NCBI RefSeq assembly: GCF_041053055.1
Contig: NZ_CP163443.1
Location: forward strand, 1,488,001 to 1,552,000
DNA length: 64,000 nucleotides
From: Streptomyces sp. R41
GTDB taxonomy: Bacteria > Actinomycetota > Actinomycetes > Streptomycetales > Streptomycetaceae
Reading direction: 5' to 3'
Positions 9,032 to 47,588 of the stretch are shown here, in pieces. The translations under genes were made by a program, and so were the position numbers. Every line of letters begins with the position of its first letter. The first letter of the stretch is position 1. The notes beneath the pieces were generated by a model. The model was not told the origin of the DNA. It was given only the letters and a program-made list of their open reading frames with translations, and ran no database searches.

Positions 9032-10432
<1,401 letters not shown>

Positions 10433-35843: not shown

Positions 35844-36227
35844 TCAGCGTGGCGCAGGTTCAAACAGTTCGATGAGGTTGCCGGCCGGGTCGGTGAGGAG
35901 GATCTGGCGTCCGCCCGGGCCCGTGATGACGTCGCTGCGGAAGGACAGCCCGGCGGTGCGCAACCGGTCGATCTCGGTGTCGAGGTCGTTGACGGTGAGA
36001 TGGATGCGGTTGCGGCCTGGCGCATTGGAGTCATCGGGCGTGGCTCGGGCGCCGGAGCTTGCCGGCCCGGACAGCAGCAGCCGCAGCGGGCCGCGGACCA
36101 CGTCGGCGAAGGCGGGCGCGGGGTTGGTGCGCAGGCTGAAGCCGAGGTGGGTGGTGTAGAAGTCGACCGCGGCGGCCACGTCGTCGACGATGTAGCGGAC
36201 GGCGGCGAGTTCGTCGGATGGTGTCAT
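35844..36227 (-). CDS. VOC-family (glyoxalase/bleomycin-resistance fold) protein
   Basis: 127 residues with the two-beta-alpha-beta-beta-beta modules of the vicinal oxygen chelate fold (YIVDDVAAAVDFYTTHLGFS and IHLTVNDLDTEIDRLRTAGL) and the closing DPAGNLIELFEP Glu ligand. It overlaps the upstream ArsR-phosphatase gene by ATGA. It contains no cysteine at all, so it is not an ArsI-type C-As lyase, which needs a Cys pair. Its substrate is unknown; co-expression with an ArsR-type sensor suggests detoxification. Confidence 0.88.
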   Translation of the reverse strand: MTPSDELAAVRYIVDDVAAAVDFYTTHLGFSLRTNPAPAFADVVRGPLRLLLSGPASSGARATPDDSNAPGRNRIHLTVNDLDTEIDRLRTAGLSFRSDVITGPGGRQILLTDPAGNLIELFEPAPR

Positions 36228-37009
36228 GGCTGGACCTCCGGGTTCGGGGCGCGGGTGAGGACGGGCAGCAGGTAGCGGATACGCGTGTCGATCTCCGCCG
36301 CCGTGTGCCTGAAGGCGGGGTAGCTTGCCTGGTCGTTGCCGTCGGCGGCAGCCGGGTCGGGGATGCTCCAGTGGGTCCGCCGCGGCTGACCGCTGAACTC
36401 GGGGCAGATCTCGCGGACCTTGTCACACAGGCTGATCAAGTGATCGAAACGATTGCGGGCCACCGTGTCCAGCTGGCGTGGCCGCTGGTCGGCGATGTCG
36501 ATGCCGTAGTGCTCGCGCAGGACCCGCACGGCGTTGGGATGGATCCGCGGTTTGGGGTGGCTGCCGGCGCTGGTCACCTCCACCTGGCCGCCGGAGCGGT
36601 GGCGCAGCAGAGCCTCGGCGATCGGGGAGCGGGCGCTGTTGCCGGTGCACGTGAACAGCACGCAAGGCCGAGCCGACTGTTCGGTGGCCGTGGGAGGTGG
36701 TGGGGTGGGATCGAGGCGCAGTGCCGGGTGCAGGGCGACGCCGGCGGCGGCCAGCGCGTGCGCGCAGCGCTCCAGATCCAGGTGGTAGTAGCTGTCGCGG
36801 GCGTCGAAGCTGCTGCGATGGGCAGTGACGAGCCCGCTGCGGCGCAGCAGCCGCAGATGGTAGGAGATCAGGTTCTGCGGGTGGCCGAGCAGGGCGACCA
36901 GCTCACGGACCCGGTAGTCGCTTGCGGCCAGCGCGGTCAGCAGCCGCCACCGCAGTGGGTTGGCGGCCAGGCTCACAAACGCCGGGGCAGCGTGACCTGT
37001 GGGCACCAT
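36224..37009 (-). CDS. ArsR-type regulator fused to low-molecular-weight protein phosphatase / arsenate reductase
   Basis: 261 residues from the ATG at 37009. Residues 1-95 are a winged HTH (NLISYHLRLLRRSGLVTAHR). Residues 115-250 are a LMW phosphatase domain with the P-loop CTGNSARSP (Cys121, Arg127) and the Asp of the DP loop in SIPDPAAADG. The HTH lacks the CxC motif used by classical ArsR to bind As(III). Known actinomycete fusions of this type sit in arsenic loci, but no pump or ArsM is seen here. A palindromic operator lies 14 nt upstream. The gene is first in an operon with the VOC gene. Confidence 0.9.
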   Translation of the reverse strand: MVPTGHAAPAFVSLAANPLRWRLLTALAASDYRVRELVALLGHPQNLISYHLRLLRRSGLVTAHRSSFDARDSYYHLDLERCAHALAAAGVALHPALRLDPTPPPPTATEQSARPCVLFTCTGNSARSPIAEALLRHRSGGQVEVTSAGSHPKPRIHPNAVRVLREHYGIDIADQRPRQLDTVARNRFDHLISLCDKVREICPEFSGQPRRTHWSIPDPAAADGNDQASYPAFRHTAAEIDTRIRYLLPVLTRAPNPEVQP

Positions 37010-37022
37010 GCCAATAGGATAA

Positions 37023-37038
37023 ATCAAACCCGTTTGAT
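37023..37038. promoter_or_regulatory. ArsR-type palindromic operator
   Basis: ATCAAACCCGTTTGAT: ATCAAAC and GTTTGAT are inverted repeats with 2 nt between. It lies 14 nt upstream of the ArsR-phosphatase start, ideal for autorepression, and matches the ATCAAx-N-xTTGAT pattern of ArsR boxes. Confidence 0.75.
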
Positions 37039-37336
37039 GGATTCCGCTCCGCGGGCGAGGGTGAAGCGGAAGCCCACTCCGAATGGACCAGCGCCGAAGC
37101 CCACCACGAGGCGGCCGAAGGCACTCGCACACGACATGCGGCACGAGATCTTCTTCAGGCCCCCCGGGGGCTGCGGCTCATCTACCGCACGCCGTATTAC
37201 CTGTACCGCGGGCCGTGCCGGCCCTCCGTGTAATCCGGATGATCCAGGGCACCCAACGTGGAGGACGCATCTCGTCGGGAAGGAGAGATCGCAAAGCAAT
37301 GGATCACCTCTTCCACCTCTCCGGTAACGTCACGGT

Positions 37337-39022
37337 ATGAGCCATCCACATCCGGAACTGCACACCGCCCCGCCACTGCCCGACGGAGGGCTACGGGTCG
37401 TCGCCCTGGGCGGCCTGGGTGAGATCGGCCGCAACATGACCGTCTTCGAGCACGCCGGCAAGCTGCTCATCGTCGACTGCGGCGTGCTGTTCCCCGAGGA
37501 GACCCAGCCCGGCGTTGATGTGATCCTGCCCGACTTCACCTCGATCCGGGAGCGCCTGGACGACATCGTGGCCGTCGTGCTCACCCACGGGCACGAGGAC
37601 CACATCGGGGGCGTGCCGTATCTGCTGCGTGAGCGGTCCGACATCCCCGTCGTGGGCTCCAAACTGACCCTGGCGTTCCTTGAGGCCAAGCTCAAAGAGC
37701 ACGGCATCCGGCCGCGCACGGTGCGGGTGCGTGAGGGCGACCGGCGCGGGTTCGGGCCGTTCGACTGCGAATTCGTAGCGGTGAATCACTCGATCCCGGA
37801 CGGTCTCGCGGTCGCGATCCGCACCGGTGCCGGGATGGTGCTGCACACCGGCGACTTCAAGATGGACCAGTTCCCGCTGGACGACCGCATCACCGACCTG
37901 CGTGCCTTCGCCCGCCTCGGTGAGGAGGGCGTCGACCTCTTCCTGGTTGACTCCACCAACGCCGAGGTGCCCGGATTCACCGTCGCCGAGCGCGAGTTGA
38001 ACCCAGCGATCGAGCAGGTCCTGCGCACCGCGCCACGCCGCGTGATCGTCTCCAGCTTCGCCAGCCATGTGCACCGCATCCAGCAGGTCCTGGACGCCGC
38101 TCACCAGCACGGCCGCAAAGTCGCCTTCGTAGGCCGGTCGATGGTCCGCAACATGGGCATCGCCCGCGACCTGGGCTACCTGAAGGTTCCGCCCGGCCTG
38201 GTGGTCAACATGAAGGAAATGGAGAAGCTGCCGGACCACAAGATCGCCCTCGTCTGCACCGGATCCCAGGGCGAGCCGATGGCCGCGCTGTCGCGGATGG
38301 CCAACCGCGACCATGTGATCCGCATCGGCGAGGGCGACACGGTCCTGCTCGCCAGCTCCCTGATCCCGGGCAATGAGAACGCCATTTACCGGGTGATCAA
38401 CGGGCTGACCCGGTGGGGTGCCCACGTCGTCCACAAGGGCAACGCCAAGGTGCACGTCTCCGGACACGCCAGCGCCGGTGAACTCGTCTACTGCTACAAC
38501 ATCATCAAGCCCCGGCACGTCATGCCCGTCCACGGCGAATGGCGTCACCTCCGGGCCAACGGCGACCTCGCCATCCGTACCGGCGTCGATCCCGACCGGG
38601 TGGTCATCGCCGAGGACGGTGTCGTCGTCGACCTCGTCGACGGGCGCGCCTCGATCACCGGCAAGGTGCCCGCGGGCAACGTCTACGTGGACGGCATGGA
38701 AGTCGGCGGCGCCACCGAGGCCTCCCTCAAGGACCGCCTCACCCTCGCCAACGAAGGCGTGGTCACCGTCGTGGCGATCGTCGACGCCGACACCGGCGCC
38801 CTCGCCGAACCCCCCGACTTCCTGGCCCGCGGATTCGTCCACGACGACACCACATTCGAACCGGTCATCCCGGTGATCGAGAAGACCTTGGCCAGGGCGG
38901 CCGAGGAAGGCGTCGGGGACGCGCACCAGCTCGAACAGCTCATCGCCCGCGCGGTGGCGTCCTGGGCGTTCCGGACCTACCGCCGCAAGCCCCTCATCAT
39001 CCCCGTCATCATCGACGCCTGA
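37337..39022 (+). CDS. rnj: Ribonuclease J
   Basis: 561 residues, normal RNase J length. The metallo-beta-lactamase motif is HGHEDH (His84, His86, Asp88, His89). Further ligands are NHSIPD and HTGDFK, with HVSGHAS and MPVHGEWRHL closing the beta-CASP active site. The C-terminal domain ends AFRTYRRKPLIIPVIIDA. It is a 5'-to-3' exonuclease and endonuclease that matures rRNA and degrades mRNA. The ATG at 37337 follows a stretch without a strong Shine-Dalgarno. The chromosomal rnj of streptomycetes usually follows dapA, which is not here, so this may be a second copy. Confidence 0.93.
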   Translation: MSHPHPELHTAPPLPDGGLRVVALGGLGEIGRNMTVFEHAGKLLIVDCGVLFPEETQPGVDVILPDFTSIRERLDDIVAVVLTHGHEDHIGGVPYLLRERSDIPVVGSKLTLAFLEAKLKEHGIRPRTVRVREGDRRGFGPFDCEFVAVNHSIPDGLAVAIRTGAGMVLHTGDFKMDQFPLDDRITDLRAFARLGEEGVDLFLVDSTNAEVPGFTVAERELNPAIEQVLRTAPRRVIVSSFASHVHRIQQVLDAAHQHGRKVAFVGRSMVRNMGIARDLGYLKVPPGLVVNMKEMEKLPDHKIALVCTGSQGEPMAALSRMANRDHVIRIGEGDTVLLASSLIPGNENAIYRVINGLTRWGAHVVHKGNAKVHVSGHASAGELVYCYNIIKPRHVMPVHGEWRHLRANGDLAIRTGVDPDRVVIAEDGVVVDLVDGRASITGKVPAGNVYVDGMEVGGATEASLKDRLTLANEGVVTVVAIVDADTGALAEPPDFLARGFVHDDTTFEPVIPVIEKTLARAAEEGVGDAHQLEQLIARAVASWAFRTYRRKPLIIPVIIDA

Positions 39023-39373: not shown

Positions 39374-41755
39374 TCAGACCCGGCGCAGTTCACGGCCGTT
39401 GGAGACCGCCAGCGCGAAGTCCTGATGCGGCTCCACCGAGATCACGGAGCGCAGCGAGCGCCTGGTGACGGACACGCCCCAGACGCGGATCAGATAGGGG
39501 TCGGTGCCCGGCTCGTCGATCACGACCTGCTGGACGTTGTTGGTCGCGTGCGGGAAGGGCCGCACGTCTCCGTCCCGTACCGGTCCGCCGTCCTCCGCCC
39601 GGACCTGCAGGTAGAGCTTGTTGACGAGGTCGCCGTTGCCGGGTTGGGACGGTGCGTCGGTCCAGACGAGGGTGATCTTGAGCGGTCGGCCCGGGTCGAA
39701 CTGCTCGAGGCGGTACGTGACGAGCTCGCCGGTCTGCACCGCGTCCATCCACTCGTCGACGAAGAGCATCCGATGCCGGCCGTCCCTGCCGATGGCCCCG
39801 GCGACATCGACTCGGCCGAAGCCGCTGGCGCCGTTGGGCCCGGTCGGGATCTCCCCGGTGAACTGGCCCTTCATGGCGGCCGCGCCGTTCACCAGGCATG
39901 CCTTGACCAGTGCGGAGGTCGGTTGATGCTGCCGTTCCCGTACCAGGTACTCGCGGACCAGGGCCGCGGCGCCCGCGGCGAGCGGCGTGGCCATGCTGGT
40001 GCCACCGCTCCAGCAATAGGCGCTGCGCAGCGGGTGGTTGAGCGGCAGCTTGCCCCACAGCGGGACGGCATTGGGCGGCAGGGCGCGCGACAGCATCGAC
40101 AGGACGTTGGTGCCGGGTGCGATCAGGTCGGGCTTGATCCGGCCGTCGTCCGTGGGTCCGCGCGACGAGAAGGCGGCCAGCCCGTCGACGTTGTCGGAGA
40201 TGTGGCCTGCCGCGCCCATCTTGGGGAAGCGCAGCACCCCACCCCTGGTGAACCGGTCCCAGGTGGTGTCGCGTCCGGGCGGCGGCGCGGAGCCCGCCGG
40301 GCGGTCGTTCTCGCCGGCGCCGATGGACAGGCAGTTCTTCGCGGTTGCCGGGGAGCCGATGGAGTCCGAGTCGACCACGCCGTTGCCATCGTCGTCCGCG
40401 CCTTCGTTGCCGGCCGAGAACAGGATCAGCATGTCGGGGTTGTTCCAGGCGAACTCGTCGACCGCACGCGCCTTGGTGGTGTAGAGGCCGGCGGTCGGTG
40501 CGCCCCAGGAGTTGGTGTGGATACGGGCCCCGGCACGGTAGGCCTGCTCGAAGAGCGGCCCGAGGTCCTCGGGAAGCCCGTGCAGACCGGCCTCGGCGGG
40601 CGGCCAGGTATCGCTGATCCGGGGCAGCCCGGCGACCTCCGCCTCGGTCTTCCAGTGCACGCGCTGGCCGATGGCCTGGAAGAAGACCTTCGCCTCCGGC
40701 GCCACTCCCGAGGGGGCCGGTGTGATGTTCGCGTCCCGGGCGGCCGCGCCGTTGCCGAGCACGGAGCCCGTCACATGGGTGCCGTGTCCTATGTCGGGGT
40801 CGGAGGGCCCGTCGTCGCTGCCGGGCGGGTCGTTGACGTACGGCGCCAGGGTGAGGCGGGTCGGCCAGCTCACCATGCCAGCGACCCGGCCCCGTACATC
40901 CGGGTGCATCGTGTCGGGGTCGCCGGTGTCGAGGCCGGAGTCGGCGATGGCGACGATCTGGTCGGCGCCGGTCAGCTCGATGCCGCCTGCCGAGTTGTCC
41001 TCCTGGACTTCGAGGACCAGTCGGGCGCGATCGTTGTGGAACTCCGGCAGCGCGTACGGCAACACGGCCTGGACGCCGGGCTGTTCGGCGAGGCCCGCCG
41101 GGTCGGCGTTCGCCACGAGGGTGCGGCCCGCCGCGGACAGGACGGCTCCGCCCGACTCACGGACCGCTGCGGCCACGTCCTCGATGCTCTCGCCGGGGAA
41201 GACGGAAACCTCGACGAGCTGGCTCTCGGCCCCGGCCGGATGGGCGAGTTGCTCGGTGCCCAGGGACCGTGTCGGCGTGGTGTGCACCTTCGGGGAGACC
41301 TTCATGGCGGGCCGGTACGGCGTCACCTCGGCGACCCACGGCAGCGCGGTGAGAGCGTCGACGTTCTCCGGGAGCACGCCGATGAGCAGTGTGAAGTTCG
41401 CGAGGCTGTCGTGGATGCGGGCGCCGTGAGAGCCCAGCTCGCGCAGCCACCGAGGCGCGGGGGGTCCTGCCAGCCGCAGCAGGTAGTAGGCCGTGCGTCC
41501 CGCCGGGGGCTCGAGGGCTGCCTCCTGCTGGGCTTCTACCGCGTCGGCGAAGGAGAAGGAGTTTCCGGCGGTGAGCAGCGGCCGTTCGGCGAGCTCGGTG
41601 GCTTGGACGTCCAACGCGCCGACGCGGATGGCCTGTTCGTCGGTCGCGCGGATGAGCATGGCGTCGGGGTAGCGGGCGAGCACCTCGACCCCGGTTCCGC
41701 GGACGGCGGTGTCCTCGTCGTCCGTCCGTACATGCACCAGCAGTGTGGCAGTCAT
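39374..41755 (-). CDS. S8-family (subtilisin-like) serine protease without signal peptide
   Basis: 793 residues from the ATG at 41755 (GGAGT upstream). The catalytic triad is clear: Asp in VAIADSGLDTG (about residue 270), His in GHGTHVTG (about 324) and Ser in SGGTSMATPLAAG (about 585). NSWGAP carries the oxyanion Asn, and FSAGNEG is also present. A long N-terminal region of about 260 residues repeats alpha/beta blocks of the inhibitor I9 kind, and a C-terminal beta-sandwich follows. It begins MTATLLVHVRTDDEDTAVRG, with no Sec, Tat or lipoprotein signal, so it appears to act in the cytoplasm. Its neighbour is a STAND regulator, and its promoter region shares a motif with another gene of the cluster. 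Confidence 0.92.
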   Translation of the reverse strand: MTATLLVHVRTDDEDTAVRGTGVEVLARYPDAMLIRATDEQAIRVGALDVQATELAERPLLTAGNSFSFADAVEAQQEAALEPPAGRTAYYLLRLAGPPAPRWLRELGSHGARIHDSLANFTLLIGVLPENVDALTALPWVAEVTPYRPAMKVSPKVHTTPTRSLGTEQLAHPAGAESQLVEVSVFPGESIEDVAAAVRESGGAVLSAAGRTLVANADPAGLAEQPGVQAVLPYALPEFHNDRARLVLEVQEDNSAGGIELTGADQIVAIADSGLDTGDPDTMHPDVRGRVAGMVSWPTRLTLAPYVNDPPGSDDGPSDPDIGHGTHVTGSVLGNGAAARDANITPAPSGVAPEAKVFFQAIGQRVHWKTEAEVAGLPRISDTWPPAEAGLHGLPEDLGPLFEQAYRAGARIHTNSWGAPTAGLYTTKARAVDEFAWNNPDMLILFSAGNEGADDDGNGVVDSDSIGSPATAKNCLSIGAGENDRPAGSAPPPGRDTTWDRFTRGGVLRFPKMGAAGHISDNVDGLAAFSSRGPTDDGRIKPDLIAPGTNVLSMLSRALPPNAVPLWGKLPLNHPLRSAYCWSGGTSMATPLAAGAAALVREYLVRERQHQPTSALVKACLVNGAAAMKGQFTGEIPTGPNGASGFGRVDVAGAIGRDGRHRMLFVDEWMDAVQTGELVTYRLEQFDPGRPLKITLVWTDAPSQPGNGDLVNKLYLQVRAEDGGPVRDGDVRPFPHATNNVQQVVIDEPGTDPYLIRVWGVSVTRRSLRSVISVEPHQDFALAVSNGRELRRV

Positions 41756-41817
41756 GGAGGACTCCCCTTTCACGCTATTCGGTTGGCTGTCGACGAGTGT
41801 GGTGGCGGCCGGTGGCC

Positions 41818-41854
41818 GGTTGACGAAAGCTGACGGAGCTGGACAGAACTGGCC
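41818..41854. promoter_or_regulatory. Shared promoter motif, copy upstream of S8 protease
   Basis: Reading towards the protease (minus strand), this 37-bp element starts GGCCAGTTCTGTCCAG and ends TTTCGTCAACC. It contains three roughly 10-bp-spaced direct repeats of a TNYGTCA type. Its near edge is 62 nt from the protease start. The same block with one repeat fewer is at 44505-44531. Confidence 0.7.
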
Positions 41855-41859
41855 GTCGG

Positions 41860-44433
41860 TCAGCTCTGGTCGAGCAGGCGGTGCAGCGCGGACGCCTCGG
41901 GGACCCCCAGTGCGTCGAAGAGCCCGGCCGCGGTCTGCCACTGGCGGCGGGCCGCGGTGCGGTCCCCGGACTCCTGGCTCAGCCTGCCGAGGCCGGTCAG
42001 GGCACGGGCCTGCTCGTAGCGGTCGCCGTTGTGTTGGGCCAGCTCCAGGGCGGTGCGGAAGGAATCGGCGGCGTCCTCGGACTTTCCGGTGGCGTGCTGG
42101 GCTTCGCCGAGGTCGACGAGCGCGCCGGTCTCGACCTCGGCCTCGCCCACCTCATGGGCGAGTTCCACCGCCCGGCCCAACTGGTCGAGGGCCTCACTGT
42201 GGCGGCCGGCCCGCAGATGGACGTCGCCGAGGCCGCGCAGGGCATCGGCCTGGCCTGTCCGGTATCCCGTCTCCAGGTAGATGGGCAGGGCCTGTTCATG
42301 ATGGTCGGCGGCGTCGGCGAGGCGGCCAAGACGCAGGCTTGCCGAGCCGAGGTTGGTGAGCGCGACCGCCTCGCCGACCCGGTTACCGATCTCACGGTTG
42401 ATGGTGAGGGCGCGGGCGTAGTGGTCGTACGCCTCGGCGTAGCGGCCGGTGCGCTCCAGGGTGGTGCCCAGGTTGTTGAGGACCCGGGCCTGGCCGATGC
42501 GGTCGCCGCGCTCCTGGTAGAGGGTGAGCGCCCGCTGCTGGTGGTCGAGTGCCTTCGGGTAGTCGCCGAGCTGCCGGTACACGGTGCCGAGGCCGTACAG
42601 GGCGGCGCCCTCTCCGATGTTGCCGGCCAGTTCCCGGTGCAGGGCGAGCGCCTCTTCCAGGTGGCCGCGGGCCTCTTCGTACCGGCCGAGCCGCCAGGCC
42701 AGTGTGCCGAGCCCCTGCAGCGCGTTCGCCTCGCCGGCCCGGTCGCCGCTCTCGCGGTGCGCTGCGAGTGCCTGCAGGTGGTGGTCGACGGCCGCGGTGT
42801 ACGAACCGGTGCGCAGATGGGCGGTGCCCAGACGGTTGAGGGCGTCGGCCTCTGCCCGGAGGTCGTGCCGGGCGCGGGCGGCTCGCAGGGCGAGCCCGTG
42901 CAGAGTGAGGCCGTCGCGGTAGTGGGCACCGGTGTCGAGGTGACGGTCCAGGCAGACCGAGAGCTCGACGGTGTGCTCCGGCGAGATGTCGACAGCGGCG
43001 GCCGCGACGGCCAGGAGGTTGGAATGCTCGGCGGCCAGCCAGGGGTCGTGCGGTCCGGCGGCGCGGCGGGCGGTGTGCAGATAGTGGTTGAGGAGCCGGA
43101 GCAGCGCGGGCTGCCGGTCGGTGCGGTCCGCGGCCTGCTCGGCCGCGTAGGCGCGGAGCAGATCGTGCATCGCGAAGCGGCCCGCGCTGCTCTCGTCGAG
43201 GAGGTGGGCGCGCGTGAGGGTGTCCAGCAGCCGGTGCGCCGTGACCGGTTCGGCGTCGAGGAGCGCGGCGGCGGCCTCGATGCCGATGTCCTGGCCGGGG
43301 TGCAGTCCGAGCAGTTGGAACGTGGTGAGCGCCGGGTCGGGCAGCAAGCGGCAGGACCAGGAGAACACCGTGCGTACGGCGGTGTAGTCGTCCTCGCCCG
43401 CGGCCAGCAGGTCGAGCCGGCGGGACTCGTCGCCGAGGTCGGCCACCAGGCGGGACAGCGGTACGGCGGGATGGGCCGCCGCCAGTTCGGCGGCGATGCG
43501 CAGGGCGAGGGGCAGCCGGGCGCAGCGTTCGGCGAGGGCGACGGCCTGCTCGGGTTCGGCCTCGGCGCGAGCCCCGATCAGGCGACTGAGCAGGGCGACG
43601 GCTTCGGTGAGAGGCAGTACGTCGAGGTTGATGCGGACGGCGCCGTGCCGGGCGACGAGCGCGGGCAGCGAGTCGCGGCTGGTGACGAGGACCTGGCAGG
43701 TGGGCGTGCCGGGCAGCAGGTCGCGCACTTGGTCCACGGAACGGGCGTTGTCCAGGACGACGAGGGTCTTCCGGCCGGCGAGCAGGGTGCGGTAGCGGGC
43801 CGCCCGCTCGTCGAGGCCGTGCGGGATGGCGGAGCCCTCGACGCCGAGGGCACGCAGGAACACTTCGAGCGCTTCCGCGGCGGACACGGGCCGGTCCGGG
43901 TCGTAGCCACGGAGGTTGAGGTAGAGCTGTCCGTCGGGGAAGGCGTCCGCCACACGGTGCGCCCAGTGCACGGCGAGGGCCGTCTTCCCGACGCCCGCGG
44001 TGCCCGACACCGCCGAGATCACCACGGCGGTGGCGTCGGTGGCCGACTCGGCGAGCAGCCGGTCCAGGTCGGCGATCTGACTGTCACGGCCGGTGAACGC
44101 CGTGACGTCGCCGGGGAGTTGGCGGGGCGGCGGGAAGTGGTCGGCCGCGGCCGGCGGGGCTGCCGGGACCGTGGGGTCGGCGCTGGCCGCGAGCCACAGG
44201 GCGTGGAACCGGCCGGGATCACCCCCCAGCGTCTCCACGATCAGCTCGAGAAGTCCCCAGCGTGGCACGGCGGGCCCGGAGAAGGCGACCGAGACGGTGG
44301 TGTGGCTGCAGCCGACCTCCTTGGCCATCTGGCGCAGGCTCGGCCGGCCGGCCCGGTGATGCAGCTCGTGCAGCGCGTCGAAGAGGGACCGCACCGGTCC
44401 CTCGGCCAGGTCGGGCCTCGGCAGCACCCTCAT
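41860..44433 (-). CDS. XRE-NB-ARC-TPR (STAND) regulator
   Basis: 857 residues. An N-terminal helix-turn-helix (RPSLRQMAKEVGCSHTTVSV) is followed by the NTPase domain with Walker A GTAGVGKTALAVHWAHRVAD (about residue 148), Walker B KTLVVLDNA, sensor RDSL and a winged-helix region (AMHDLLRAYA). The second half (about residues 520-830) consists of eight or more TPR repeats (LGTLAWRLGRYEEARGHLEE and similar). STAND proteins oligomerise when the repeats bind a ligand. The HTH suggests that the output is transcription. It lies between the S8 protease and two divergent genes. Confidence 0.92.
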   Translation of the reverse strand: MRVLPRPDLAEGPVRSLFDALHELHHRAGRPSLRQMAKEVGCSHTTVSVAFSGPAVPRWGLLELIVETLGGDPGRFHALWLAASADPTVPAAPPAAADHFPPPRQLPGDVTAFTGRDSQIADLDRLLAESATDATAVVISAVSGTAGVGKTALAVHWAHRVADAFPDGQLYLNLRGYDPDRPVSAAEALEVFLRALGVEGSAIPHGLDERAARYRTLLAGRKTLVVLDNARSVDQVRDLLPGTPTCQVLVTSRDSLPALVARHGAVRINLDVLPLTEAVALLSRLIGARAEAEPEQAVALAERCARLPLALRIAAELAAAHPAVPLSRLVADLGDESRRLDLLAAGEDDYTAVRTVFSWSCRLLPDPALTTFQLLGLHPGQDIGIEAAAALLDAEPVTAHRLLDTLTRAHLLDESSAGRFAMHDLLRAYAAEQAADRTDRQPALLRLLNHYLHTARRAAGPHDPWLAAEHSNLLAVAAAAVDISPEHTVELSVCLDRHLDTGAHYRDGLTLHGLALRAARARHDLRAEADALNRLGTAHLRTGSYTAAVDHHLQALAAHRESGDRAGEANALQGLGTLAWRLGRYEEARGHLEEALALHRELAGNIGEGAALYGLGTVYRQLGDYPKALDHQQRALTLYQERGDRIGQARVLNNLGTTLERTGRYAEAYDHYARALTINREIGNRVGEAVALTNLGSASLRLGRLADAADHHEQALPIYLETGYRTGQADALRGLGDVHLRAGRHSEALDQLGRAVELAHEVGEAEVETGALVDLGEAQHATGKSEDAADSFRTALELAQHNGDRYEQARALTGLGRLSQESGDRTAARRQWQTAAGLFDALGVPEASALHRLLDQS

Positions 44434-44504
44434 GCGTCCTCCCCCAAGGTCGCCTGGTCAAAGGCTCCTCTGCCGCATCCCGTGCTGTAAAGCCGGTTGC
44501 GGGC

Positions 44505-44531
44505 GGCCAGTTCTGTCAGGTTCCGTCAACC
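44505..44531. promoter_or_regulatory. Shared promoter motif, copy in STAND/small-protein divergent region
   Basis: This 27-bp element on the plus strand starts GGCCAGTTCTGTCAGG and ends TTCCGTCAACC. It carries two TNYGTCA direct repeats. It is 61 nt upstream of the small-protein ATG at 44593 and 71 nt upstream of the STAND gene on the other strand. It corresponds to 41818-41854 minus one 10-bp repeat. Confidence 0.7.
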
Positions 44532-44592
44532 CGCCCCGCGCGCCCCAAGACTGATGAGTGACCCGACGGACCGCCGGAAAGGGGCGAAGGAC

Positions 44593-45096
44593 ATGACCAC
44601 CTTCGAGGACGCGACACTGCTCGGACTCGCTGTACAGGCCCGGCTCAAGCGCCCGGCGCCGACCGCACCGATGGACTCGCACCAGCTTTCGGATGTCCAG
44701 CGGGAAGAAGTGGCGGCCGCTCTGCGGTATTTGGAGGCATCGGGTGTACTGACCGGGAGCGAGAGCACGTCGTTCCAGGAGTACGTGTCCAACGGCAAGC
44801 TGCCGGAGGCCGATTCAGCTCCCTCGCCGTTCACGGTGGGTTCGGTTCTCGCGATCCTCGTGCAGCACGGTGCGCAGGCCGGCGCGCTCGGCCATGTCGT
44901 CGACGCCGCGGTGGACGGCTTCGTGCACGCCGGCCCGCACGCCGCGGTCGGCTGCGCCTCGATCGCCGCGATGGAGTCGCTGCGGGCGACGAAGAGCGCC
45001 GTACCGGGAGCCGTCTTCGTGCCAGGGGCGACCAAAAGCAGCACGGGCGGCATCAAGAGCGGCACCGGCGGAATCAAGAGTGCCGTCACTCCCTGA
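44593..45096 (+). CDS. Hypothetical protein with Gly-rich repeat tail, STAND-associated
   Basis: 167 residues from the ATG at 44593 (GGGGCGAAGG just upstream); an ATG at 44554 is possible. An acidic and helical N-terminal half (QLSDVQREEVAAALRYLEAS) precedes a hydrophobic middle rich in Ala and His (VGSVLAILVQHGAQAGALGH). The C-terminus is a short repeat of the type GGIKSGTGGIKS. No signal peptide, and no family that I recognise. It shares a promoter motif with the S8 protease and is divergent from the STAND gene. The repeat tail looks like a tag or protease substrate, but that is inference. Confidence 0.75.
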   Translation: MTTFEDATLLGLAVQARLKRPAPTAPMDSHQLSDVQREEVAAALRYLEASGVLTGSESTSFQEYVSNGKLPEADSAPSPFTVGSVLAILVQHGAQAGALGHVVDAAVDGFVHAGPHAAVGCASIAAMESLRATKSAVPGAVFVPGATKSSTGGIKSGTGGIKSAVTP

Positions 45097-45115
45097 GCGC
45101 CGTGCCGACCGCGGT

Positions 45116-45982
45116 GTGCGGACACTGCGCGTCAAGGTGCTGCGGTACGTCTGGGAGACCGGCTGGTCGGGGGCGCGGCCGGTCAGGCCCTGGCCCGACG
45201 AGGTCTTCACCGAGGTCTTCCAGGAGGCCAACGGGCGCAGTGTGCGGGACTTCTGGCTGCGGTCGACCCTCGGCCGTACGGCCGTCGACTTCGACATCGC
45301 CCCCTGGACCGTCCTGCGCGGCGGCTTCCAGGAGACGCTGAAGGAGGACCGCGCCGGGACAGTACGGGCCTGCCGACGCCAGGCCGAACGAGACGGAGTG
45401 GCGCTCTCCGGTTTCCACCGTCTGATCGCCTTCCTTCATGAGCCACCGTCGGACACGGGGCTGTGCGGCGGCTCACTCGTTCTCGACCAAGGGGCCCGCG
45501 CGCCCACGGACTTCCGTCGCGAGGTCGGCCGCCTGATCGGCTTCGGACCGGTGCTCGACGCCCGTGGCCTGCCCGGTGCTCCGTACTGCGTGATGGGCTC
45601 GGGGACCTGCCGGGCCGCCGCGGCCACGCTGTTCGCCCACGACCCGGTGTTCCGGGCGTCGTCGAGGGCGGTGCGCGTCGGGGCGCCGGGGACCGTAGAT
45701 CTGACCGCACTGGGGGACGCGTCCTGGCACGGTGGCGAGCCGGTGCTCGCCACCGTGCCGGTGACCGGCGGCGACATCGTCGTCGAGTACCGCACGGACA
45801 GCGGTCTGCCGCCCGCGGTGGTCGTGCACTCCGTCGGGGTCCGCTCCCCAGGGGTACGTTTCGAGGGTGCCCTCGCGCCCGAAAGCGGCGCGCACACCGT
45901 GGTCCTCGGTATACGGGTCGCTGTCCTCGGCACCTCGCCCCGGAGCGTCACGCTGGAATTGGACCCTCGCGGCCGGCGGTGA
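45116..45982 (+). CDS. Metzincin-like protein with degenerate zinc site (pseudo-protease)
   Basis: 288 residues from the GTG at 45116, 20 nt after the previous gene. The central part follows a metzincin layout: a strand, then DFRREVGRLIGFGPV (about residues 131-145), then a Met-turn-like YCVMGSG (about 157-163). In active enzymes the first stretch would be HExxHxxGxxH; here all three His positions are Arg, Arg and Pro, while the Glu and Gly remain. The C-terminal domain (about 200-288) is beta-rich (VVVEYRTDSG, TVVLGIRVAVLG). It has no signal peptide. It is best read as a catalytically dead protease that binds peptides, but the homology is inferred by eye. Confidence 0.6.
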   Translation: MRTLRVKVLRYVWETGWSGARPVRPWPDEVFTEVFQEANGRSVRDFWLRSTLGRTAVDFDIAPWTVLRGGFQETLKEDRAGTVRACRRQAERDGVALSGFHRLIAFLHEPPSDTGLCGGSLVLDQGARAPTDFRREVGRLIGFGPVLDARGLPGAPYCVMGSGTCRAAAATLFAHDPVFRASSRAVRVGAPGTVDLTALGDASWHGGEPVLATVPVTGGDIVVEYRTDSGLPPAVVVHSVGVRSPGVRFEGALAPESGAHTVVLGIRVAVLGTSPRSVTLELDPRGRR

Positions 45983-46682
45983 GCCGAGGGGCGGTTGCCG
46001 CTCGCGGGGCCGGGACGGGCGAGCCCAGCAGCCCGGCGAGCAGCGAGCACGTCGCGGCTCCAGAAGCAGCTCACCGTCATCGACGGACTCCAGACCGACG
46101 ATCAGGGCGATCCGTACGGCTCGGCCTGGCGCCCTGCAGCAGTAACCGGTACCCGGCCAGGCTGTCGCTGCATTCGCCGCCGCCGGCGGCCGCTTCGCAC
46201 AGCACATAGCACCCACGGCACGGCCATCCTGACCGTGGTGAATGAATCCGACACCCAGGCCCTGGTGGTGCTGGTGTGCGCCGGGTTCGTGCGGTGCACG
46301 AGCGCGGAGGCGGCCGCCGACGCGCAACACGGGTACCGGCGGCCCCGATCCCCCGGCGGCACGCGCCCGCCCCGTTCGCCCGCCGTCCCCTGTCACCTGC
46401 TTTTCTTCTGTTTTAGGGCGAGCGCGGGGGTGTGCAGAGGGGGATGTCGGGCCCCTGACCACGGTCAGACAGGCGTGGTGACCTGCGGATATGCCGCCCA
46501 CGGCGTGGCAGCGCGCGGGCAGTTGTCGGAGGGGATGTCGGCCTGGTCGTCAGGGGTGTTGTCGCATCGTGACCATGGTCGGGCCTTCGTGGACACAGGT
46601 GTGGTCGGGGTCGGCTGCTGCTGTGGCCGGTACGCGCGGCGCCGGGCAGGACGGCGCCGCCCCGTACGGGAGAGACAGGCCG
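45983..46682. other. 700-bp region without a supported gene
   Basis: Several open frames exist but none has good codon bias or a family match. A GACCATGGTC palindrome is at about 46568-46577. The right end (46640-46682) should hold the promoter of the replication-relaxation gene. It may be the edge of an integrated element. Confidence 0.4.
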
Positions 46683-47588
46683 ATGATGAGCGACGTGGAT
46701 GCGGGCGGTGGGGACCGGCTGGCGCTGGCGGTGCTGACGCAGTACCGGATGGCCACGACCGAGCAGATGCACCGGGTGATCGCCCCTGGGGTGCGCATCG
46801 AGCAGACTCGGCGTCGGCTGGCCAAGCTGCGCGATGAGGGGCTGATCGACCGCATCACGCTGCCCCGGGCCGGACGGATGCGGGTGTGGTTTCCCACCGC
46901 GTACGGCGTGCAGATCGCTTCGGAGTGGCCGGAGTTACGCGGACGACGGCCGCCGAAGACAGTGTCCGATCCGACCGCCGTACGGCTGCGGGTCGGCCAC
47001 ACCCTGACGGTGACCGAGACCGCGCTCGTCTTCCTTGAAGACGTGTGCCACCGCGGCGAGTTGTGCCGGCCGCTGGACTGGATACCCGAGGTCTACCACC
47101 CTATTGGGGGCGGCGAGGCCGTCATCCCCGACGCCCTCATGTACTACCGGCGCGGCCATGAGGGCGGGGCTGGGGCAATGCTGCGAGCGTTCGTCGAGGT
47201 CGACCGGGCCACCATGGGCCCCGAACGCCTCGCCGCGAAACTCACCGCCTACGCCCGCCTCCACCGCTACCTGCCCACTCCCCCAGGGCGGCGCCACCGG
47301 CCGGCCATCGGCCAGGAGCCGGCGCCGGAGGAATGACGACGGCACTACCCGCTCTTCCCCCGCCTCTTGTTCGTCCTGGACGACACAGGCCCCGCCGGCA
47401 TCACCACCCGCATCCACGCCCTGCACGCCGCCGCCGCGGACCCGGCGCTGGCCGGCTTCCTGCGCGACGTCCCCGCCCTGGCCGCGGCACTGGCAGACCT
47501 GCGCAACCACGGCCCCTCCGAGCCCGTGTGGCACCCCGTCCAGGCCCCCGAGAGCACCGTCGCCTGGAGCCAGTCCCCGCACCTGTAG
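46683..47588 (+). pseudogene. Replication-relaxation-family protein interrupted by an in-frame TGA
   Basis: The first part (217 codons from the ATG at 46683) has a winged helix (MATTEQMHRVIAPGVRIEQT) followed by the domain containing VIPDALMYYRRG and AFVEVDRATMGPERLAAKL, typical of the replication-relaxation family of actinomycete plasmids and integrative elements. A TGA follows at 47334-47336. The same frame then continues RRHYPLFPRLLFVLDDTGPA, a normal continuation (family WRxxYPxFP), to 47588. A single TGG-to-TGA change, or stop readthrough, explains it. Confidence 0.75.

What the first reader, a model, noticed from the sequence alone, without database searches (positions are those of the whole stretch)
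39374..45982. Candidate new module: STAND regulator, cytoplasmic subtilisin, tagged small protein and pseudo-metzincin
A STAND NTPase with HTH and TPR repeats lies between a protease with no export signal and two small genes. The protease and the small-protein gene share a promoter motif at 62 and 61 nt. Intracellular protease plus STAND sensor plus dead-protease partner resembles a sensing-and-proteolysis system (for example anti-phage or stress suicide) more than nutrient use. I do not know a described system with this set.
Basis: partly seen in the sequence, partly recalled or inferred. Interest (0 to 1): 0.9.

Follow-up and report, generated by a model that had tools for sequence, protein, structure and literature searches.

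The report
STAND-controlled protease and pseudo-protease cluster
A rare group of neighbouring genes in an actinomycete, in which a switch-like DNA-binding ATPase probably turns on an internal protein-cutting enzyme together with a small tailed protein and a dead protease; its biological purpose is still unknown.

The parts
39374..41755 (-). S8 subtilisin without export signal, 793 aa (catalytic domain 264-625, N-terminal extension of about 260 aa)
   Evidence: Pfam Peptidase_S8 132 bits; PDB best 5fax SubHal and 1wmd; D272, H324, S587 invariant in 23 aligned sequences; no N-terminal hydrophobic stretch
41818..41840 (-). Operator/promoter copy 1, upstream of S8 (a further repeat unit lies at about 41841-41850)
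   Evidence: one of only two sites in the genome with up to 3 mismatches; the pattern was built from this site, copy 2 and the Fodinicola L009 site, so its 0 mismatches are by construction
41796..41801 (-). -10-like CACACT of the S8 promoter (inferred)
   Evidence: aligned columns in six promoters
41860..44433 (-). STAND regulator, 857 aa: HTH, NB-ARC, TPR array
   Evidence: Fodinicola orthologue 56% identical overall, HTH 79.3%, NB-ARC 66.4%, TPR 42.6%
44509..44531 (+). Operator/promoter copy 2, upstream of the small-protein gene, between the two divergent genes
44547..44552 (+). -10-like AAGACT of the small-protein promoter (inferred)
44593..45096 (+). Small protein, 167 aa: predicted helical head and disordered tail with four KS units
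   Evidence: AlphaFold2 mean pLDDT 68.5, residues 135-167 under 50; 5 other relatives found; tail counts
45080..45982 (+). Pseudo-M6 metzincin, 300 aa; HExxHxxGxxH reads REVGRLIGFGP (residues 147-157); start overlaps the small gene

Best explanation
A STAND-switched regulon. The HTH-NB-ARC-TPR protein is held off until its TPR domain meets an unknown inducer. It then oligomerises on 10-bp direct repeats and switches on two transcripts: the S8 gene on one side and the small-protein/pseudo-M6 operon on the other. In the cytoplasm the S8 acts as the executing protease. The small protein offers its flexible KS-repeat tail to the S8 as substrate, adaptor or brake. The pseudo-M6 binds peptides without cutting them and so tunes or senses the S8. 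Shown: the genes, an intact S8 triad, no export signal by a simple scan, a predicted M6 fold with lost zinc ligands, a direct-repeat motif confined in this genome (up to 3 mismatches) to the two promoters and conserved with the STAND HTH in Fodinicola. Inferred: that this STAND binds the motif; that binding activates; everything said about substrate, tail and pseudo-M6 function.
Against: No DNA-binding data. The patterns were built from the module's own sites, so their zero mismatches are by construction. In Fodinicola weaker copies (2-3 mismatches) precede other genes, so the motif may belong to a wider regulator or sigma factor; the reversed control also gave one hit in G778. No S8 of this family was found in either Fodinicola genome, and S8 stands without small protein and pseudo-M6 in 8 of 8 other loci, so it is no obligate partner. 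No pseudo-M6 relative was listed on contigs of the lengths of those of P0003, P0004 or P0007. P0006 has KP in place of KS and its S8 status is unknown. The F. feengrottensis small gene is interrupted in the draft.
Confidence: 0.5

Rival explanations
1. Direct NLR-type immune complex: the STAND oligomerises on an invader signal and activates the S8 post-translationally, which degrades cell proteins or matures the small protein into a toxin.
For: STAND next to a protease without export signal; NB-ARC and TPR present; S8-containing antiphage models (IteS/IetS) exist in NCBIfam and PADLOC (the IetAS system itself is recalled).
Against: The STAND carries an HTH and the cluster a conserved operator. 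The S8 scores 26.6 bits against the IteS cut-off of 900. In Fodinicola the STAND has no S8 of this family. No phage-related result was obtained.
Confidence: 0.15
2. Peptide-maturation system like the FxSxx systems: the small protein is a precursor whose repetitive tail is cut by the S8 into signal or toxin peptides; the pseudo-M6 is the leftover or recruited former peptidase.
For: Kaur et al. 2020 (section 24 read) describe a zincin, a small protein with a conserved C-terminal peptide and an AP-ATPase with TPRs; here are a dead zincin, a small protein with a repeated C-terminal motif and an NB-ARC-TPR protein. HaaT (cyclophane RiPP TPR protein) gives 419 bits to the STAND, under its cut-off of 1125.
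Against: No radical SAM or other modifying enzyme among the neighbours scanned (not every ORF was scanned); tail motif is none of the four described types; P0006 has no KS.
Confidence: 0.25
3. Loose neighbourhood: S8 (and small protein) landed beside an unrelated regulator and the shared motif is a general promoter element, for example of an ECF sigma factor recognising GTCAACC and a -10.
For: Modules assort differently in other genomes; weaker motif copies before unrelated genes in Fodinicola; a replication-relaxation protein gene lies 0.5 kb away.
Against: Only two copies with up to 3 mismatches in the whole genome, few for a general promoter; repeat units point to an activator; small protein and S8 recur together in three other genomes or contigs.
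Confidence: 0.1

Closest known systems
Peptide-processing systems of Kaur et al. 2020 (FxSxx-COOH type; PMC7159879, section 24)
   Same: zincin-fold protein, small variable protein with a conserved C-terminal motif, AP-ATPase/NB-ARC with TPRs
   Different: zincin dead, S8 present, tail of KS type, HTH on the STAND, no radical SAM and no MoxR-vWA core seen among the neighbours scanned
AfsR/SARP-type STAND activators
   Same: NB-ARC plus TPR behind an N-terminal DNA-binding domain; direct-repeat operator about one helical turn apart before a weak CACT-like -10 (PMC10936776, passages seen); AfsR model 420 bits
   Different: no SARP/BTAD match but HTH_31; repeat 10 bp instead of 11; last repeat ends about 18-19 bp before the -10-like element instead of 8; below the AfsR cut-off (1430)
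IetAS antiphage system (system recalled; models)
   Same: an S8 peptidase next to an ATPase
   Different: IteS/IetS scores far below cut-off or weak; the ATPase is NB-ARC-TPR with HTH; small protein and pseudo-M6 added
M6 (immune inhibitor A) peptidases
   Same: predicted fold over nearly the whole length
   Different: zinc ligands lost; no export signal apparent by eye at the N terminus
SubHal/KP-43 subtilases (name KP-43 recalled)
   Same: sequence match of the later catalytic part and following domain, query 517-763
   Different: extra N-terminal region of about 260 aa, no secretion signal

Membership tests
Kaur et al. peptide-processing system | zincin-like metallopeptidase that cleaves the small protein | tested here: not met
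   zincin fold predicted but active-site motif lost in 18 of 18
Kaur et al. peptide-processing system | small diverging protein with FxSxx, RxD, acidic or FtsH-associated C-terminal peptide | tested here: not met
   tail is KS repeats, read directly; no NCBIfam or Pfam match
Kaur et al. peptide-processing system | AP-ATPase with C-terminal TPRs | tested here: met
   NB-ARC and TPR_12
Kaur et al. peptide-processing system | radical SAM-SPASM gene or MoxR-vWA core nearby | tested here: inconclusive
   not among the neighbours scanned; not every ORF of the window was scanned and the genome was not searched for them
AfsR/SARP regulator | N-terminal SARP (BTAD) domain | tested here: not met
   HTH_31 instead; no BTAD among the matches of the N-terminal 109 residues
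AfsR/SARP regulator | NB-ARC plus TPR control region | tested here: met
AfsR/SARP regulator | direct-repeat operator bound by the regulator | tested here: inconclusive
   direct repeats present; binding not testable
IetAS | IetS-family S8 peptidase | tested here: not met
   26.6 bits against cut-off 900; PADLOC IetS best 31.1 bits
M6 peptidase | M6 fold | tested here: met
M6 peptidase | HExxHxxGxxH zinc site | tested here: not met
   of 18 family members 0 keep the first His, 12 the Glu, 2 the second His, 18 the Gly, 3 the third His (read)
Active S8 subtilase | Asp-His-Ser triad | tested here: met
   D272, H324, S587 invariant in 23 sequences
Anti-phage defence system | protects against phage | not testable with these tools
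   no assay; PADLOC without a strong specific hit

The most novel reading that the evidence does not exclude
An undescribed actinobacterial conflict or stress-suicide module in which a STAND transcription switch launches a cytoplasmic subtilisin together with its own tagged partner and a dead-protease decoy or brake, so that a dead zincin and a live S8 have replaced the single zincin of the FxSxx-type peptide-processing systems.
Probability: 0.25. Interest if true: 0.75.

Novelty: new variant of a known kind. Interest (0 to 1): 0.55.

Why it matters
It gives a compact, testable case of a STAND regulator with a candidate operator and three named outputs, and a clear example of a pseudo-metzincin family with scattered remnants of its zinc site. 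If the S8 acts on the KS tail, it would link bacterial STAND switches to a dedicated intracellular proteolysis step, parallel to protease-executed immunity in other organisms. If not, it is still a rare, well-bounded regulon beside a large family of apparently non-exported subtilisins of unknown purpose.

Tried and rejected
Rejected: that the S8 is secreted. That the last protein is not a metzincin. That the weak G056 match (1.6e-4) is a relative: its neighbours look like a contractile-injection cluster (by eye). That the STAND matches in G011 and G069 are the same module: neither locus holds the other three genes, and G011's protein starts like a SARP regulator (by eye). A viral-contig scan for the pseudo-M6 found no relative. 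Plasmid hits of the S8 (6 records) are under 33% identity. The small protein's low-confidence model had no PDB match with E <= 0.001; that is no evidence of a new fold. My literature searches listed no title on this combination; I saw listings and abstract starts only, except PMC7159879 (passages, and section 24) and PMC10936776 (passages); one search returned no paper. The ORF caller missed the small gene even in the window, so I repeated the neighbourhood test with tblastn of all four families, nine window or relative queries in the small and pseudo-M6 families together, with the window and L009 as positive controls that rang. In 8 of 8 other S8 loci (about 8-10 kb on each side; G1100's S8 is cut) nothing but S8 rang at 1e-3, except a distant STAND in L025. 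In some searches only 2-9 first-look candidates per genome were scored, so misses are possible, and genomes overlap between searches. A note said that 0 of 18 family members have HExxH; one search shows that P0021 and P0022 carry an HEELH string outside the aligned active-site helix.

Full report
What is there. The window lies at 1,488,001-1,552,000 of a 10.46-Mb single-contig genome, of an unnamed actinomycete, probably a Streptomyces (inferred from its nearest protein relatives). Four genes fill 39374-45982. RNase J (37337-39022) is on one side and a replication-relaxation protein gene (46491-47336) on the other. The S8 gene reads 41755 to 39374, the STAND gene 44433 to 41860, both on the minus strand; the small-protein gene (44593-45096) and the last gene (45080-45982) are divergent from them, the last start overlapping the preceding stop. 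All four frames have their highest G+C at the third codon position; the antisense frame over the small gene does too, so that gene rests more on its homologues.

The protease. Pfam gives a subtilase domain at 264-625; the best solved matches are SubHal (5fax) and 1wmd (a KP-43-type protease, as I recall). The triad is invariant in 23 aligned sequences. The family is large: 1302 proteins at E <= 1e-20 among the 7994 candidates scored. Of the 120 listed, one, a partial protein, has a hydrophobic stretch over my threshold in its first 45 residues. A place inside the cell is therefore well supported, though by a proxy and not by SignalP.

The small protein. Five other relatives were found. The model is a helical head and a disordered tail, of low confidence (pLDDT 68.5), with no PDB match at E <= 0.001. 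The tail carries KS units: 4 here; 4, 6, 4, 0 and 2 in P0003 to P0007; P0006 has three KP instead.

The regulator. HTH_31, NB-ARC, TPR. The nearest curated models are AfsR, HaaT and the FxSxx TPR protein, all well under their cut-offs. The Fodinicola orthologue in L041 is 56% identical: 79.3% in the HTH, 66.4% in NB-ARC, 42.6% in the TPR part.

The operator. Both upstream regions share a stretch which 0 of 2000 pairs of dinucleotide shuffles equal. With up to three mismatches the 23-bp pattern is found twice in the genome and nowhere else; the reversed control gives none. A slightly widened pattern was run over 13 genomes: no site in 8; one 3-mismatch site each in G056 and G069; two in G782, three in G778, two in G000; the reversed control gave one hit, in G778. 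The patterns were made to fit the module sites, so only the absence or presence of other sites is informative. The best sites in G782 and G778 lie between the STAND gene and its divergent partner. Weaker Fodinicola sites lie before an Rv2525c-like gene (Pfam 35 bits) and before a small gene with a hydrophobic segment (by eye). Six promoters align with a common -10-like element; in L041 that element ends 6 nt before the ATG of the pseudo-M6 gene, so that transcript may be leaderless (inferred). This resembles STAND activators of the AfsR kind, which bind direct repeats about one helical turn apart before a weak CACTGT -10 (PMC10936776, passages), with different spacing.

Who has what. S8 at E <= 1e-130: own genome only among 392 of the genus and among 394 of the class, 7 of 397 in the order of Fodinicola, 1 of 150 in a further order; none in F. 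feengrottensis (itself without a positive control, where other genomes rang) or in G782. In these 8 S8 loci neither small protein nor pseudo-M6 is found by tblastn, and only one, L025, has any STAND, a distant one. Small protein: own only among 382. Pseudo-M6: own plus one spurious match among 100; one locus in a two-pattern scan of 84,980 species, which may leave out the window's own genome; 2 of 3 in the Fodinicola family. STAND at E <= 1e-120: own and two regulators without the module among 150. Of the five other small proteins three sit in a genome or on a contig with a close S8 (94%, 76%, 61% identical), judged by equal contig lengths and by locus tags two apart; the other two lie on short contigs. 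L041 has STAND and pseudo-M6 but no recognisable small gene; L009 has STAND (in pieces), an interrupted small gene recognised by P0007 at 62.5% over 40 residues, and pseudo-M6.

Reading. The cluster is a regulon whose constant core is STAND plus operator, with outputs that come and go. A STAND transcription switch with a conserved HTH and a variable TPR sensor fits this better than a fixed STAND-protease complex. That the KS tail is seen wherever S8 and small protein are found together (4 of 4: 4, 4, 6 and 2 units) and not in the frames of the S8-less Fodinicola draft (1 of 1) suggests, but does not show, that the tail serves the S8; the two other small proteins (P0005 with 4, P0006 with 0) have unknown S8 status. 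The dead M6 may bind the same tail or its fragments. Defence, development or stress control remain open.

Comparison. The set resembles the peptide-processing systems of Kaur et al. 2020 (section 24 read) in parts list, but the zincin is dead and the tail is of another type, so I do not file it there. It is not IetAS by score, and not a SARP regulator by domain. My searches of the held papers listed no description of this set (listings only for most); most subscription papers are not held.

Noticed in passing
L050 9671-9693 (-) and L051 9614-9636 (+): In two Fodinicola genomes weaker copies of the operator precede an Rv2525c-like glycoside-hydrolase-like gene and a small gene with a hydrophobic segment at a similar distance, hinting at a wider regulon there.
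   Followed up: partly
L041 about 10120-10300: A long imperfect inverted repeat (transposon-like) sits between operator and STAND gene in the Fodinicola acaciae-like genome; seen by eye in the sequence.
   Followed up: no
window 36224-37144 (-): ArsR-type HTH fused to a low-molecular-weight phosphatase-like domain.
   Followed up: no
window 46491-47336 (+): Replication-relaxation family protein 0.5 kb from the cluster; possibly a remnant of a mobile element. No tRNA in the window.
   Followed up: no
G000:C1:41790-42596 and G000:C1:1077187-1077993: Two S8 genes with identical scores and open-frame lengths, about 1 Mb apart, which suggests a recent duplication.
   Followed up: no
P0020 (pseudo-M6 homologue, 323 aa): Keeps second and third zinc His but not the first His or the Glu, an intermediate in the decay of a metzincin site.
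   Followed up: no
L025 13606-16764 (+): A distant STAND (27% identity to the window STAND) lies about 2.5 kb from a Glycomyces-type S8 of this family.
   Followed up: no
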